From positions 1 through 38,475 of the IMG/VR virus record IMGVR_UViG_3300049919_000103: 38,475 nt of DNA; one strand, written 5' to 3'. This document shows, piece after piece, positions 8,870 to 38,286 of this stretch (positions are counted from its first letter, which is position 1; the number at the start of each line of letters is the position of its first letter). This DNA comes from a virus. The notes beneath the pieces were generated by a model. It made no database searches. It saw only the letters and a program-made list of their open reading frames with translations, and was not told where the DNA came from. The position numbers and the translations under genes are program-made.

Positions 8870-8964
8870 GGAGGGGTGGTAGAGCGGTTTATTGCAACTG
8901 TCTTAAACACAGTCGGACTACCTTGACCAGGTCAGTTCCGTGGGTTCGAATCCCATCCCCTCCG
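8870..8964 (+). tRNA. Class II tRNA, anticodon UAA, with serine-like body
   Basis: All arms fold. The acceptor is GGAGGGG/CCCCTCC. The D stem is GTA/TGC. The anticodon stem is ACTGT/ACAGT with loop CTTAAAC, giving UAA (Leu UUA codon). A long variable arm follows (GACT ACCT/AGGT c AGTT), then the T stem GTGGG/CCCAT with loop TTCGAAT. The discriminator is G (8964) and CCA is not encoded (GCA follows). The G73, the GGAG acceptor and the D-loop AGCGGTTTA resemble bacterial tRNA-Ser rather than tRNA-Leu, which carries A73. Standard tools would label it tRNA-Leu(TAA). Charging identity is uncertain. Confidence 0.85.
8915..8932 (+). repeat. 18-nt inverted repeat, arm 1 (tRNA variable arm)
   Basis: GGACTACCTTGACCAGGT forms most of the tRNA variable arm and is the exact reverse complement of 9031-9048. 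A perfect 18-mer match 98 nt away is not expected by chance. Confidence 0.95.
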
Positions 8965-8971
8965 CATTGAG

Positions 8972-9030: not shown

Positions 9031-9168
9031 ACCTGGTCAAGGTAGTCCTAATGTTCTAACCAATCTATTGGACAAGAATAAACGGACTAATAACATTTTT
9101 CTTTAAAAGGCCTTCTAGTACAGTTAGAGAAGAATGTTAGCAGAAGCACCCGAAAGGGTGTTTTTTGT
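9031..9168 (+). ncRNA. Putative sRNA antisense to the tRNA variable arm
   Basis: A transcript from the promoter at 8997-9024 to the terminator at 9146-9168 would be ~138 nt with no ORF of useful length. Its first 18 nt (9031-9048) are exactly complementary to 8915-8932 of the upstream tRNA. Internal stems AGTCC/GGACT (9044-9048/9084-9088), AATGTT/AACATT (9050-9055/9092-9097) and CCAA/TTGG would partly fold it. It could bind the tRNA or its precursor. In a read-through transcript the same repeat would form an 18-bp hairpin that unfolds the tRNA. Confidence 0.6.
9146..9168 (+). terminator. Intrinsic terminator of the sRNA/tRNA unit
   Basis: A CACCC stem, GAAA tetraloop and GGGTG, followed by TTTTTTG. 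The stem can extend by a G-U pair. This is a classic plus-strand terminator that separates the RNA genes from the three small ORFs. Confidence 0.9.
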
Positions 9169-26804: not shown

Positions 26805-27167
26805 TTATGGCAATGTTTTTACATTTTGTTTAACACTAGATTGAGTGTTTTTCATCAACTCTTTCAGGACAAACCATTCCAGTTCACCGAAGAAGTAGGA
26901 GTTTACAGTTTCGCAACCCTTATCAAGTACTGGTTTTGTTTTTATAAAAACTTTCGTTCTAGTGTTCCAACGTTTCAATGTTTGGTGAGCAATCTTTCGT
27001 TTTGTTTTAACTTCGTAATACTCAGCCATATCCCGAACAGAGTAGCCAAGGACACAATGCCGTCTCCACATTTCTTTCCATGTGCCTAATGAAACTTTAT
27101 ACTCCTTAGAAAAACGAGTATCAGGATCACAGGTAAATAATTCACTTTTAGTAATAAGAATTAACAT
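26805..27167 (-). CDS. Protein of unknown function between terminase and portal
   Basis: 120 residues, basic, with a probable helix-turn-helix-like segment (CVLGYSVRDMAEYYEVKTKRKIAHQTLKRW). It overlaps the terminase stop by 1 nt. It might be a small DNA-binding factor; no family recognised. Confidence 0.6.
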   Translation of the reverse strand: MLILITKSELFTCDPDTRFSKEYKVSLGTWKEMWRRHCVLGYSVRDMAEYYEVKTKRKIAHQTLKRWNTRTKVFIKTKPVLDKGCETVNSYFFGELEWFVLKELMKNTQSSVKQNVKTLP

Positions 27168-28351
27168 TATTCAAAAGCTTTTTTAGTCGCACGATTCTGA
27201 TTAACCCGAGCTTGCATAACATAATCCGGCATACTTGGTTGAAATGACGTCATAGCGTAACGTAGAGCGTCAAGGCAGTGATCTAGCCCTCCTTCTGGTA
27301 CATTTAAAATCTTGCCATCTCGGTCAATGGCCCATAGGTAGTTTCTATACTCTTTTATTAAATTGACTGAACGCTTTGTTATAGAAATCTTTTGATTCTG
27401 AATAAATTGAATCCCTTGATTGATCGAGCCTGGACCTTTTACAGCTGGTTGAATGTTCACGTCATAGCTTTTGATTTCATCAATTGATTTAGGTTCAGCA
27501 CTATCAGCAATCGCCAAAGTTTCAGGCAAAACCTTAATAGTGTCAGCTATTTGTTTATTACTCATTCCTTTTTTGTAACAAACTTCATCAAGGATATATC
27601 CCCCGTTATAGTAGTAAATATCTACAATGGCTGTAGGATCATTTGTATAGCCAAAGTCCACACCACGACGTTCCAGGCGTGCCTCATGGGGAAATTCATC
27701 AAGTATCTGCCAATCTTTATAAATCTTCCCTTCTACTTCTCCGAGCTGTCCTAGTCCATACACTTGCCACCAGCCTTTGCGATTTTTTCGTTGCTCAATT
27801 GAGTTTATAATTTCCTTTGAGAGAGCTTCATTATCTTTGTAAGTCAGTACTATTAATTCAGCATCATCTCGTTTTTGTATAACATCTGTATAAAACCAAA
27901 ACTCGTTAGTCGGGTTCCAGTCTAGGTATACAAATTCTTTTGTACGAACTTCTAATTGATCGAAAGCATCTAAAGGAATGTTGTTTGCTTCGTTAATGAA
28001 TAGCCTGTCACGTCTAGCTCCTCGAAGTTTATCTGGTTGATCAGCACTAAAGAACTCTATTTGTGATTTAGTTTCAAAGGTATAAATAGAATCGGAAGCA
28101 CTCCAACTATCTTCTTTCCAGTAATTATGAGCTTGCATGATGTTCTTAAAGTCACGAATAGCCCCACGTTTTAAGTGTGGGACTGATTCAGATACGATTG
28201 AAGTAAGAGTAGGTTTCGTGTCTCTTTGTGATTTATCTATCAACACCAAAAGAGTTGAAATGGTCTTTGAAGCAGAAGTACCGCCTTGCACACCTCTAAT
28301 CTTCTTAGTTAGACTCTGTACTTTCTTCGTTGATGTTGTTAGTTGGTACAT
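27167..28351 (-). CDS. Terminase large subunit (TerL)
   Basis: 394 residues, an ATPase-nuclease. The Walker A variant is GGTSASKT (23-30) and Walker B with catalytic Glu is LFINEAN (118-123). An RNase H-like nuclease carries acidic residues in DFGYTNDPTA (D232), IADSAEP (D283) and GGLDHCLDALRYA (D357/D361). It cuts concatemeric or circular DNA and pumps it through the portal. The start overlaps the small subunit by 47 nt and is kept because Walker A lies close to the N-terminus as in other TerL proteins. Confidence 0.9.
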   Translation of the reverse strand: MYQLTTSTKKVQSLTKKIRGVQGGTSASKTISTLLVLIDKSQRDTKPTLTSIVSESVPHLKRGAIRDFKNIMQAHNYWKEDSWSASDSIYTFETKSQIEFFSADQPDKLRGARRDRLFINEANNIPLDAFDQLEVRTKEFVYLDWNPTNEFWFYTDVIQKRDDAELIVLTYKDNEALSKEIINSIEQRKNRKGWWQVYGLGQLGEVEGKIYKDWQILDEFPHEARLERRGVDFGYTNDPTAIVDIYYYNGGYILDEVCYKKGMSNKQIADTIKVLPETLAIADSAEPKSIDEIKSYDVNIQPAVKGPGSINQGIQFIQNQKISITKRSVNLIKEYRNYLWAIDRDGKILNVPEGGLDHCLDALRYAMTSFQPSMPDYVMQARVNQNRATKKAFE

Positions 28352-30276: not shown

Positions 30277-30603
30277 CTATTTATTAAATGCTTCCCACTT
30301 TTTATCTACTTCTTCGACTGCGGAGTTGTGGCCATCTGCAAATGCTTTTGGTTTAGTCTTGTCTTCAACAGGTTCTAAGGTCTTTATGCCGTCCCCCCAA
30401 TCAACCTCTTTAAAGGTGTACTTATCTAGTGACAACCCTTCTCGTGTGATGTTGGCTATTTCTTGGAGTTTAGAAGCCCACCATTCTGTAATGTTCCCTA
30501 CTCCAAAGTTCTTTGTGTATTCGTCTTCTCCTTGCCATACTCCAGCATCTACAAAGGCTTGAAACTCCTCTTTAGCTTTATTTACGTGTTCTGATAGGGG
30601 CAT
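30277..30603 (-). CDS. Small phage protein, unknown
   Basis: 108 residues, soluble, helical, acidic, Trp-rich (WWASKLQEIANITREGLSLDKYTF). No family recognised. It starts 1 nt from the stop of the following Cys-rich gene, indicating an operon. Confidence 0.55.
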   Translation of the reverse strand: MPLSEHVNKAKEEFQAFVDAGVWQGEDEYTKNFGVGNITEWWASKLQEIANITREGLSLDKYTFKEVDWGDGIKTLEPVEDKTKPKAFADGHNSAVEEVDKKWEAFNK

Positions 30604-30604
30604 A

Positions 30605-30784
30605 TTAGTTAATGAAGTACTTAATAAATTTATCTACAACCTCATCTCTTTCAATCGTACTGCCTTGAGGGGCAACATTTTCCGCCCATTCCCTAAACGC
30701 CAAATATTTACAAACTCTACATTTCCCACAATGATTATCAGCAGCACAATAAAAGCTTTTCTTATACCAATTATGTTCTTTCAT
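30605..30784 (-). CDS. Small Cys-rich protein
   Basis: 59 residues (MKEHNWYKKSFYCAADNHCG...). Cys at 13, 19, 22 and 25 with His at 4 and 18 suggest a single metal site. It is the first gene downstream of the folded tRNA-like RNA and abuts the next gene. No family recognised. Confidence 0.6.
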   Translation of the reverse strand: MKEHNWYKKSFYCAADNHCGKCRVCKYLAFREWAENVAPQGSTIERDEVVDKFIKYFIN

Positions 30785-30825
30785 ATCTATTCACTTACCT
30801 GATAAATTTTAGTTATTAATGATCT

Positions 30826-31165
30826 AAAAGGTACTGTTCCCCTCGCATTGAATGGACTTTATAAGGTGTAACTCTTTTGGAATTACTGCATGCCTTATTG
30901 ATTATTCGGCATAATCCTTCAATGTGAGAAGATAACAAAGTTAATCTTGATGGTGGCAGGATTCGAACCTGCGAAGCTTACGCATGACTTGCGTTTCGGT
31001 ACCAACTCCTCCTTATTTAAACGTCATATTCCACCACACCATTTCGATTACTCCCTCTTTCGAGGGGAACAATACCCTTTGAGAAGTGCATAATTCTGGC
31101 GAAAATTAATCCTTAGACTCATCCAAATAAATTGGTAACTTAACCTTTCGGTTCCTAAAGCACTT
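30826..31165 (-). ncRNA. Large folded RNA with tRNA-like core
   Basis: Nested pairings without an ORF. A 20-bp helix, 31080-31061 with 30845-30826, is perfect on the minus-strand RNA if two G-U pairs are allowed; these are A-C mismatches on the plus strand. Inside lie the tRNA-like unit 30948-31043 and a three-helix region at 30842-30930. Beyond the 5' side a 6-bp stem (31160-31165/31084-31089) encloses hairpins AACC-GAAA-GGTT, CCAA/TTGG and a TTAATTT/GAATTA pair. This fills a 435-nt gene-free stretch. It resembles GOLLD/ROOL-type phage RNAs in setting only; it is smaller and I cannot assign it. Confidence 0.6.
30948..31043 (-). tRNA. tRNA-like element, non-canonical (possible pseudo-tRNA)
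   Basis: The T arm is perfect (GCAGG-TTCGAAT-CCTGC) and the acceptor pairs ATGGTG/CACCAT with an A-C at the end pair. TG follows at positions 8-9 and the next bases are GTGGAAT. No normal D or anticodon arm can be folded. Instead ATGAC+GTTT pairs with AAAC+GTCAT (31019-31027 with 30984-30996, 4-nt bulge), leaving a 22-nt loop containing AAGGAGGAG. A competing hairpin ACGCA/TGCGT exists. The shape, acceptor and T arm on a long helix without a D stem, recalls the tRNA-like domain of tmRNA. Confidence 0.5.
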
Positions 31166-31220
31166 AAGCTTTTTTGCCTAATTGTTATTTCAACCAGAGA
31201 TATACACTTCCCTCAAAGAA

Positions 31221-31388
31221 CTACTCGAACTCAGATATAACTGTGATAACCCTTTCTACGTCTTTAATGTCACTAACCTCACTATCTAACTCCTCTATCA
31301 CTTCTAATATTTCGTTCTGTTCATCCATCAGCACTATTGCTGTTGTTTTATTTATTGTTGTTAATACAACTTTTGCTTTTCTTTTCAT
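31221..31388 (-). CDS. Small acidic protein, unknown
   Basis: 55 residues (MKRKAKVVLTTINKTTAIVLMDEQ...), predicted beta hairpin then an acidic helix. It is the last gene before the folded RNA region. No family recognised. SD-less AT-rich start. Confidence 0.5.
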   Translation of the reverse strand: MKRKAKVVLTTINKTTAIVLMDEQNEILEVIEELDSEVSDIKDVERVITVISEFE

Positions 31389-31417
31389 ATATTTACTTTA
31401 ATAACTCTTCAAAGAAA

Positions 31418-31747: not shown

Positions 31748-31892
31748 CTGTACTCCTACACTCTCGGCTGGTGATGCGAAACTTTACGAATAGCAGTGCC
31801 GACTTGAGAATGCTGCAATTTGTTTTATAGTCTCCCTTTTAATTTTTCGTACACACCACCATGCGAGAGAATAGCAGTACAGTGTCGAGAGT
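31748..31892. repeat. Interleaved inverted repeats and a direct repeat in a gene-free gap
   Basis: CTGTACT (31748-31754) pairs with AGTACAG (31876-31882). ACTCTCG (31760-31766) pairs with CGAGAGT (31886-31892). The two pairs cross, as in a pseudoknot. GAATAGCAGT occurs twice (31788 and 31869), each after ATGCGA. No ORF longer than a few codons. Possible folded RNA, operator or iteron-like site. Confidence 0.45.
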
Positions 31893-37656: not shown

Positions 37657-37805
37657 TAGAGATATGGGGTTACAAAGGCTTCTAAATACCAGAAAGCTGT
37701 CACTGCTATCCCGACTCCGACCATTGCTAGGATCTCTACTCGTTCGTAGGTTTCCTTTATCGAAATGTTGTACATTTCAAAATCTACATACTTTGCTCTT
37801 TTCAT
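37656..37805 (-). CDS. 49-residue single-pass membrane protein, first early gene
   Basis: The N-terminal half is charged (MKRAKYVDFEMYNISIKETYERVE), followed by one membrane helix (ILAMVGVGIAVTAFWYLEAF). It is the first gene of the early operon, directly after the folded leader. Its stop overlaps the next start (TAATG). No family recognised. A first-expressed membrane peptide suggests an early host-takeover or exclusion role, as inference. Confidence 0.6.
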   Translation of the reverse strand: MKRAKYVDFEMYNISIKETYERVEILAMVGVGIAVTAFWYLEAFVTPYL

Positions 37806-37824
37806 GATGATGATTTATGCCCTT

Positions 37825-37905
37825 CGTTCACCTTCCCATCATGTGAGATGGAAGGTGGCATTCTTTGGTAGAAGATATACTCCTTCTCTTTCGAGAAGGT
37901 GAACG
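37825..37905 (-). promoter_or_regulatory. Folded early leader with alternative pairings
   Basis: On the minus strand CCTTCTC-GAAA-GAGAAGG (37899-37882) is a perfect 7-bp GNRA hairpin. CACCTTCC-ATC/GAT-GGGAAGGTG (37857-37829) is a second hairpin. An 11-bp perfect pairing joins 37905-37895 with 37835-37825 (CGTTCACCTTC), and this excludes both. It lies 20 nt before the first early gene, so it may switch translation or transcription. Confidence 0.6.
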
Positions 37906-37994
37906 AACACATGATTAAAACTGCTGGGCTGGCAGTTATGAAGTAGCGACAAAATGATAAGTAAAATCACTACCTCGTAACTGACCTAAATAAG

Positions 37995-38022
37995 AAAAAA
38001 CAGCCCTGTTGAGAGCTGTTTT
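37995..38022 (-). terminator. Terminator downstream of the early folded RNA
   Basis: The minus-strand stem AAAACAGC/GCTGTTTT (38022-38015 with 38004-37997) has a 10-nt loop and is followed by six T and TCTT. On the plus strand the U tract is shorter (TTTTG), so minus is the likely direction. It would end a ~250-nt RNA from the promoter at 38283. Confidence 0.75.
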
Positions 38023-38058
38023 GTAGGTTTGTAGGCTTAATTAATTAGCAGTATTGCA

Positions 38059-38193
38059 AGATATATTGTTCGACGTAATCACTTTTTATACATCCCTAGC
38101 CTCGTAAGCTAGGGTCTTGAAAAGTGAGTCGAACGATATATCTGTTACCACGATCTTTTAAAATCTACTAAACAGTCTCTTATTTAGTAACAG
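38059..38193 (-). ncRNA. Structured early RNA, two-domain
   Basis: Domain 1 is a long hairpin. A 16-bp outer stem (38059-38074/38128-38143, one mismatch that is A-C on this strand and G-U on the other), an 8-bp stem (38079-38086/38120-38127) and a 7-bp apical stem CCCTAGC/GCTAGGG with a 7-nt loop are stacked. Domain 2, 5' of it, pairs CTGTTAC/GTAACAG (38187-38193/38142-38148) and ACTAAA/TTTAGT (38167-38172/38183-38188), which overlap slightly. No ORF. It lies between a strong promoter and a terminator, so an sRNA or a put-like antiterminator RNA is possible. Confidence 0.65.
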
Positions 38194-38255
38194 TATTTAG
38201 TTGTCAAAGTTCAGAAATTTGGTAATCGTGTATAACAGGTTTGACTGATAACTGT

Positions 38256-38283
38256 AGTATATACCTTTATGCCTACCTGTCAA
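38256..38283 (-). promoter_or_regulatory. Strong early promoter
   Basis: TTGACA (38283-38278), 16 nt, TATACT (38261-38256) on the minus strand: a perfect -35 and 5 of 6 at -10. It is the best sigma70-type promoter I see in the window. Predicted start is near 38249. It lies just after the join-spanning gene's stop and drives the structured RNA and, if the terminator is passed, the early operon. Confidence 0.75.
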
Positions 38284-38286
38284 ATA

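What the first reader, a model, noticed from the sequence alone, without database searches (positions are those of the whole stretch)
30826..31165. Large folded RNA enclosing a tRNA-like core
Seen: a 435-nt gene-free stretch in which a 20-bp helix closes if two G-U pairs form on the minus-strand RNA; these positions are A-C on the other strand, which argues for RNA-level selection and fixes the strand. Inside are a perfect T arm and acceptor, a multi-stem 3' part, and outside a three-hairpin junction closed by AAGTGC/GCACTT. Known: phages carry large ornate RNAs (GOLLD, ROOL) beside tRNAs. This is smaller and may be a new class.
Basis: partly seen in the sequence, partly recalled or inferred. 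Interest (0 to 1): 0.8.

Follow-up and report, generated by a model that had tools for sequence, protein, structure and literature searches.

The report
Five-armed tRNA-like phage RNA
A phage carries a folded RNA whose core imitates a transfer RNA but has an extra arm and no normal decoding loop, and the same core turns up in an otherwise unrelated phage, so it is a real and apparently undescribed RNA whose job is still unknown.

Summary
The fold is real. No Rfam family reaches its threshold; tRNA comes closest (25.2 bits, cut-off 29).

The new result is the core, 31043-30949. A 95-nt homologue lies in a phage contig without detectable protein similarity (L250, a relative of Flavobacterium phage immuto). 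Internal positions 8-71 agree at 57 of 64. The acceptor was largely rewritten, yet six of 21 pairs changed on both sides and stayed paired. The core is tRNA-like with five arms: acceptor, extra hairpin, D-like loop, an Asp-like anticodon arm lacking U33, and a perfect T arm. In L250 it stands alone, without the enclosing helix, so the core is the conserved unit and the large fold is this genome's setting.

Relatives carry other tRNA-like RNAs in long helices. Function is inferred: a trans-acting tRNA mimic. A conserved UAAGGAGG, a full complement of the 16S tail, suggests ribosome binding in hosts that hardly use it. Two sequences only; no RNA data.

The parts
30826..31212 (-). whole folded RNA, two abutting domains, between the stop of ORF 31221-31388 and the start of ORF 30605-30784
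   Evidence: folding z -7.3 for 30785-31220 minus; helices and probabilities
31081..31212 (-). 5' domain: 12-bp helix GGGAAGUGUAUA/UAUGCACUUCUC (31212-31201/31092-31081), 6-bp helix, inner junction with three small hairpins
   Evidence: pair probabilities 0.96 and 0.97 for the two closing helices; no homologue found
31061..31080 (-). 20-bp closing helix, 5' strand AAAGGGUAUUGUUCCCCUCG
30826..30845 (-). 20-bp closing helix, 3' strand CGAGGGGAACAGUACCUUUU
30949..31043 (-). tRNA-like core of 95 nt, the conserved unit
   Evidence: Rfam tRNA 25.2 bits, E 9.2e-5 for this genome; homologue in L250
31037..31043 (-). acceptor, 5' strand AAUGGUG (first base mismatched)
   Evidence: 4 of 7 pairs changed on both sides against L250 and kept
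30949..30955 (-). acceptor, 3' strand CACCAUC; no CCA encoded
31021..31034 (-). extra hairpin GUG-GAAUAUGA-CGU, like a class II D arm without the GG of its loop
   Evidence: U-G against C-G
31008..31015 (-). UAAGGAGG, full complement of the 16S rRNA 3' tail, identical in L250
30998..31012 (-). D-like element GG-AGGAGUUGGUA-CC; AGUUGGUA resembles a canonical D loop
30980..30994 (-). anticodon-like arm ACGC-AAGUCAU-GCGU (GUC, but A at position 33); stem A-U becomes U-A in L250
30956..30972 (-). T arm GCAGG-UUCGAAU-CCUGC; G-C becomes A-U in L250
30846..30924 (-). 3' stems: 7+5 bp helix abutting the 20-bp helix, with two hairpins
   Evidence: pair probabilities 0.87-1.00

Best explanation
It is a phage-encoded, tRNA-derived RNA that works in trans as a tRNA mimic. 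Shown: a 95-nt core with tRNA-like ends, perfect T arm, an Asp-like anticodon arm and one extra 5' arm is under RNA-level selection in two otherwise unrelated phages. Inferred: the minus-strand transcript folds, the long leader-trailer helix closes, and host tRNA and double-strand nucleases trim it to a core that is not used for decoding (no U33, unlike acceptors in the two phages). It instead occupies a tRNA-binding part of the host translation or tRNA machinery (ribosome, tRNA nuclease, RNase P or a synthetase). Which target is unknown.
For: Homologue L250 without protein similarity to the window. 77 of 95 positions are identical; internal 8-71 agree at 57 of 64, acceptor strands at 3 of 7 and 2 of 7. 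97.6% of cells paired and 6 of 21 pairs changed on both sides, 0-1 in slid controls; an unconstrained consensus fold finds the acceptor, extra hairpin, anticodon-like and T arms and 6 such pairs. Model R1 over 82 sources: 121.7 and 119.9 bits for the two members it was built from, next 29.8 for an ordinary tRNA. ARAGORN does not call the window core. L250 holds it alone in a gap between groEL and the next gene. Related phages carry other tRNA-like RNAs in long helices, one family with covariation.
Against: Only two members, and R1's top scores are by construction. No expression, processing or binding data. L250's core passes Rfam's tRNA cut-off (29.8 against 29), so a functional tRNA with an insert is not excluded. 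No host target was found. The enclosing helix is not shared.
Confidence: 0.42

Rival explanations
1. Large ornate RNA: the whole 387-nt fold is the functional molecule, as proposed for GOLLD or ROOL, and the tRNA-like core is a captured domain or cargo.
For: Whole-gap z -7.3 and abutting helices. L080 has a comparable layout: an outer 34-nt helix around hairpins and a tRNA-like core. Some GOLLD RNAs carry tRNAs in their linker (PMC12286853, passages).
Against: The core exists alone in L250. No sequence homologue of the enclosing parts in 80 loci or 42 whole records. No Rfam match.
Confidence: 0.2
2. Ribosome decoy through the anti-Shine-Dalgarno: UAAGGAGG in a tRNA-like scaffold captures the 16S tail in hosts whose messages lack such sites.
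For: UAAGGAGG is identical in both members; duplex energy -12.2 kcal/mol. SD-like sites lie upstream of 1 of 54 window genes and 1 of 13 L250 genes that I picked from the ORF lists. Nearest isolates of both phages infect Flavobacterium. In F. johnsoniae the tail is sequestered and translation by bS21-depleted ribosomes needs an extended SD (PMC9976891, abstract and passages).
Against: The octamer occurs twice in the window, chance expects 1.2. AAGGAG is not enriched in the relatives' gaps, 9 against 8.2. Unpaired probability of the site is only 0.3-0.9 in the window and 0.15-0.99 in L250. The sequence lies in a stretch that is conserved anyway. None of 7 records searched encodes bS21.
Confidence: 0.13
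3. A working tRNA (Asp-like, anticodon GUC) with an insert near position 9.
For: The 3' half aligns with tRNA-Asp of Cronobacter phage CR3. L250 passes the Rfam tRNA cut-off.
Against: A instead of U33; a 2-bp D stem. The base after the acceptor is A in both members, while Asp needs G73 (recalled). The acceptor was rewritten between the two. ARAGORN does not call the window core.
Confidence: 0.12
4. A decaying tRNA gene inside a structured operon leader.
For: Below the tRNA cut-off in the window; defective D and anticodon parts.
Against: 57 of 64 internal positions and all helices except the outermost acceptor pair kept in an unrelated phage.
Confidence: 0.06
5. Cis-acting processing or antitermination element of the operon, the tRNA-like part acting as an RNase P or RNase III cutting signal.
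For: A TTCTTTGA stretch at the 5' end resembles boxA (consensus recalled); this motif sits by 3 of 14 long non-coding helices against 1.1% of background windows. rRNA operons combine boxA with leader-trailer helices (PMC10250234, abstract and passages).
Against: Two of those three are homologues. The core in L250 has no such setting.
Confidence: 0.07

Closest known systems
Transfer RNA (RF00005), tRNA-Asp in particular
   Same: Acceptor stem, perfect T arm with UUCGAAU, anticodon-like arm with GUC, D-loop-like AGUUGGUA
   Different: An extra hairpin of about 24 nt between acceptor and D arm; A33; D stem of 2 bp; below the cut-off in the window; not called by ARAGORN
GOLLD and ROOL RNAs
   Same: Large structured phage RNA; GOLLD can carry tRNAs in its linker (PMC12286853, passages)
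   Different: No Rfam match; smaller; conserved part here is the tRNA-like core
tmRNA
   Same: tRNA-like ends and T arm without a normal anticodon loop
   Different: No Rfam or ARAGORN call; no tag reading frame; 95 nt
Tenacibaculum phage Gundel_1, annotated tRNA-Tyr at 68787-68896
   Same: A cultured Bacteroidota phage with a five-armed tRNA-like RNA, here with a second T arm
   Different: No sequence kinship beyond tRNA parts (R1 22.1 bits); plain folding does not give two separate T arms

Membership tests
canonical tRNA | 7-bp acceptor and 5-bp T arm with T loop | tested here: met
   6 of 7 acceptor pairs and 5 of 5 T pairs in the window, 7 and 5 in L250
canonical tRNA | 7-nt anticodon loop with U33 on a 5-bp stem | tested here: not met
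   Loop AAGUCAU has A at 33; 4 pairs plus A-A or G-G
canonical tRNA | Score above the Rfam RF00005 cut-off; ARAGORN call | tested here: inconclusive
   Window 25.2 of 29 and no ARAGORN call; L250 29.8
canonical tRNA | Aminoacylation and decoding | not testable with these tools
   Needs biochemistry
GOLLD / ROOL | Match to the Rfam covariance model | tested here: not met
   No match at cut-off nor up to E 10 for 30600-31400
GOLLD / ROOL | RNA-only multimer | not testable with these tools
   Needs cryo-EM or sizing
tmRNA | Rfam or ARAGORN tmRNA call | tested here: not met
tmRNA | Tag reading frame conserved as protein | tested here: not met
   By eye on alignment A2: in the frame after GGAGG, reading through the T arm, codon differences between window and L250 change the residue and track base pairing
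RNase P RNA | Rfam match | tested here: not met

The most novel reading that the evidence does not exclude
A tRNA mimic of Bacteroidota phages carries a full Shine-Dalgarno complement to seize the sequestered 16S tail of host ribosomes, either freezing host initiation or marking ribosomes that lack bS21, in hosts and phages whose own messages avoid that signal.
Probability: 0.12. Interest if true: 0.88.

Novelty: new variant of a known kind. Interest (0 to 1): 0.6.

Why it matters
Tools call tRNA genes by a fixed cloverleaf, so derived forms with extra arms are missed or mislabelled. A family kept by compensatory change in unrelated phages shows that such forms are selected, and it gives a concrete RNA of 95 nt to test against ribosomes, tRNA nucleases and processing enzymes. 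The wider phage group seems rich in such RNAs, among them a second family with a helix inserted in the T loop.

Tried and rejected
Sequence relatives of the whole RNA: blastn and nhmmer over 80 terminase-related loci (of 351 relatives) gave no relative of the RNA; 42 whole records gave 11 short matches of 14-32 nt, the best being a T arm; the phage collection gave tRNA T arms and short chance matches. Pattern GGGGCATGN{2,10}CAATACGGA found the L005/L037 RNA again and nothing new of that kind among 16 stretches.

Model R1 in cellular genomes: 0 of 395 and 0 of 299 genomes in two phyla at E 1e-6; the tool warns that an empty answer shows nothing without a positive control. Also no match in 4 of 5 named phages; the fifth (Gundel_1) gave four weak matches of 16.7-24.8 bits.

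Pattern AGGTGACTATACGAGNATA in genome contigs: both hits lie inside protein genes. Of 28 stretches with GTGGYGGAATATGACG only L250 has acceptor and T arm (score 16 of 16, next 13).

Shine-Dalgarno enrichment as a class feature: rejected. BoxA as a class feature: weak. Coding in the core: rejected, no sign of codon-level conservation. Group I intron or tmRNA: no Rfam match. One search used a wrong register for the T stem and was replaced. In one search the extended-acceptor elements were chosen by eye for their long helices, so that contrast is biased; the window core itself scores only 11 there against a median of 7 for 31 ARAGORN tRNAs.

Full report
Setting. The window is a 38,475-bp virus record. 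Nearly all its larger ORFs are on the minus strand. It holds a terminase (27167-28351), a major head protein and a replication initiator. The gap 30785-31220 lies between two small minus-strand ORFs. The nearest isolates of its terminase are Flavobacterium phages at 44% identity.

The fold. The minus strand of the whole gap folds at -133.7 kcal/mol against a shuffled mean of -94.5 (z -7.3, 0 of 100 shuffles). Pair probabilities give a 5' domain closed by 12 and 6 bp, then, with no base between, the 20-bp helix. That helix holds two arms: one running through 9 bp and a small internal loop into the tRNA-like core, and a 12-bp helix that abuts the 20-bp helix and carries two hairpins. The 20-bp helix beats the best helix of every one of 1000 shuffles. 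Rfam gives nothing over its cut-off in the gap; the best sub-threshold match is tRNA (25.2 bits), which for this genome alone is E 9.2e-5.

Relatives by gene. Of 351 terminase relatives 80 were kept. None carries a sequence homologue of the RNA. But in 142 gap-and-strand folds over these loci and the window, with 15 shuffles each, some of the strongest scores lie just upstream of terminase on the gene strand. Several loci hold tRNA-like pieces inside long helices: L005, L029, L059, L080. A pattern from L059 and L192 found 5 stretches, 4 distinct RNAs (L205 and L207 alike), each with a class II D arm, an acceptor stem that runs on into a longer helix, and an insert within the T loop. Over these four, the first ten acceptor-side pairs form in 4 of 4, and 8 of the ten have more than one pair type. 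That is covariation for a sister family, not for the window's RNA.

The homologue. A pattern from the window's unusual 5' part found 28 viral stretches. One, L250, has a full acceptor and T arm around the same core. The two cores align over 95 columns without a gap; 77 are identical, 57 of 64 between the acceptor strands. Of 18 differences 12 fall in six pairs that changed on both sides and stayed paired. One keeps its pair as U-G against C-G. One, in the outermost acceptor pair, is a mismatch in the window and a pair in L250. Four lie in unpaired positions. Sliding the partner by 1-3 columns drops paired cells from 97.6% to 31-43%. With two sequences, shuffles have little power (5 of 500 reach the observed value). 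An unconstrained consensus fold gives the acceptor, extra hairpin, anticodon-like and T arms again, but pairs GG/CC at columns 35-36/45-46, whereas I set 32-33/45-46, so the D-like stem is uncertain. The flanks show no similarity, nor do the proteins (best E 0.12). L250 belongs to a phage near Flavobacterium phage immuto (polymerase 56%, GroEL 53%), and its core sits alone between groEL and the next ORF.

What the core is. From the 5' end: acceptor; an extra hairpin; a spacer with UAAGGAGG; a D-like loop with GG; an arm that aligns with the anticodon arm of phage tRNA-Asp but has A at position 33; a six-base link; a perfect T arm. It therefore resembles a tRNA with one arm too many. L192 may hold a further case with a doubled D region (29.1 bits), and Gundel_1 one with a doubled T arm, both read by eye.

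Mechanism. Shown: structure, minus-strand sense, conservation of the core. Inferred: trimming from a longer transcript and action in trans as a tRNA mimic. I give this 0.42, because a decoding role is unlikely but the target is open. The Shine-Dalgarno idea is the boldest reading; the facts against it keep it low.

Known or not. Searches for GOLLD with tRNA-like and bacteriophage, phage tRNA-like RNA with odd arms, structured RNA with phage tRNA clusters, the Gundel phage with tRNA and tRNA-like with anti-Shine-Dalgarno listed no paper whose title or shown abstract describes this RNA. The library lacks most subscription journals. Papers used were seen as abstracts or passages only: PMC12286853, PMC10250234, PMC2864571, PMC9976891.

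Noticed in passing
L192 (minus), L204 (minus), L205/L207 (minus), L059 8380-8559: A second RNA family: class II tRNA-like with the acceptor continued into a longer helix and an insert within the T loop (GGU-GACUAUACGAG...CUCG-UCAAAUCC); the acceptor helix covaries in 4 of 4.
   Followed up: partly
L080 305-520 and 8112-8334, L067 2996-3237, L195 minus near 8086-7893: RNAs sharing the outer helix TTGTTCTTTTAAA...CTTACA but with different inserts, one of them a nested tRNA-like core with encoded ACCA.
   Followed up: partly
L005 600-1215 and L037 540-985: A shared large RNA with motifs GGGGCATG..CAATACGGA and GGAAAACGGCTTGTG, found only in these two.
   Followed up: partly
window 8870-8965 and 9031-9054: Ordinary tRNA-Leu(UAA) gene whose variable arm has a 24-base inverted repeat downstream (22 of 24), in a strongly folded gap on the strand opposite to the genes.
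   Followed up: no
window 31748-31882, 37657-38286, 1305-1591, 434-846: Further gene-free stretches with strong folds (window 31748-31882 minus: 31-bp interrupted rod); the window has more long non-coding helices than its relatives.
   Followed up: no
Tenacibaculum phage Gundel_1 68787-68896: Annotated tRNA-Tyr of 110 nt appears to have two T arms and a short anticodon-like loop; found only in this phage's two records.
   Followed up: partly
L006 8888-9241: Gap with repeated and inverted GGGGCTAGGTG units, z -9.3.
   Followed up: no
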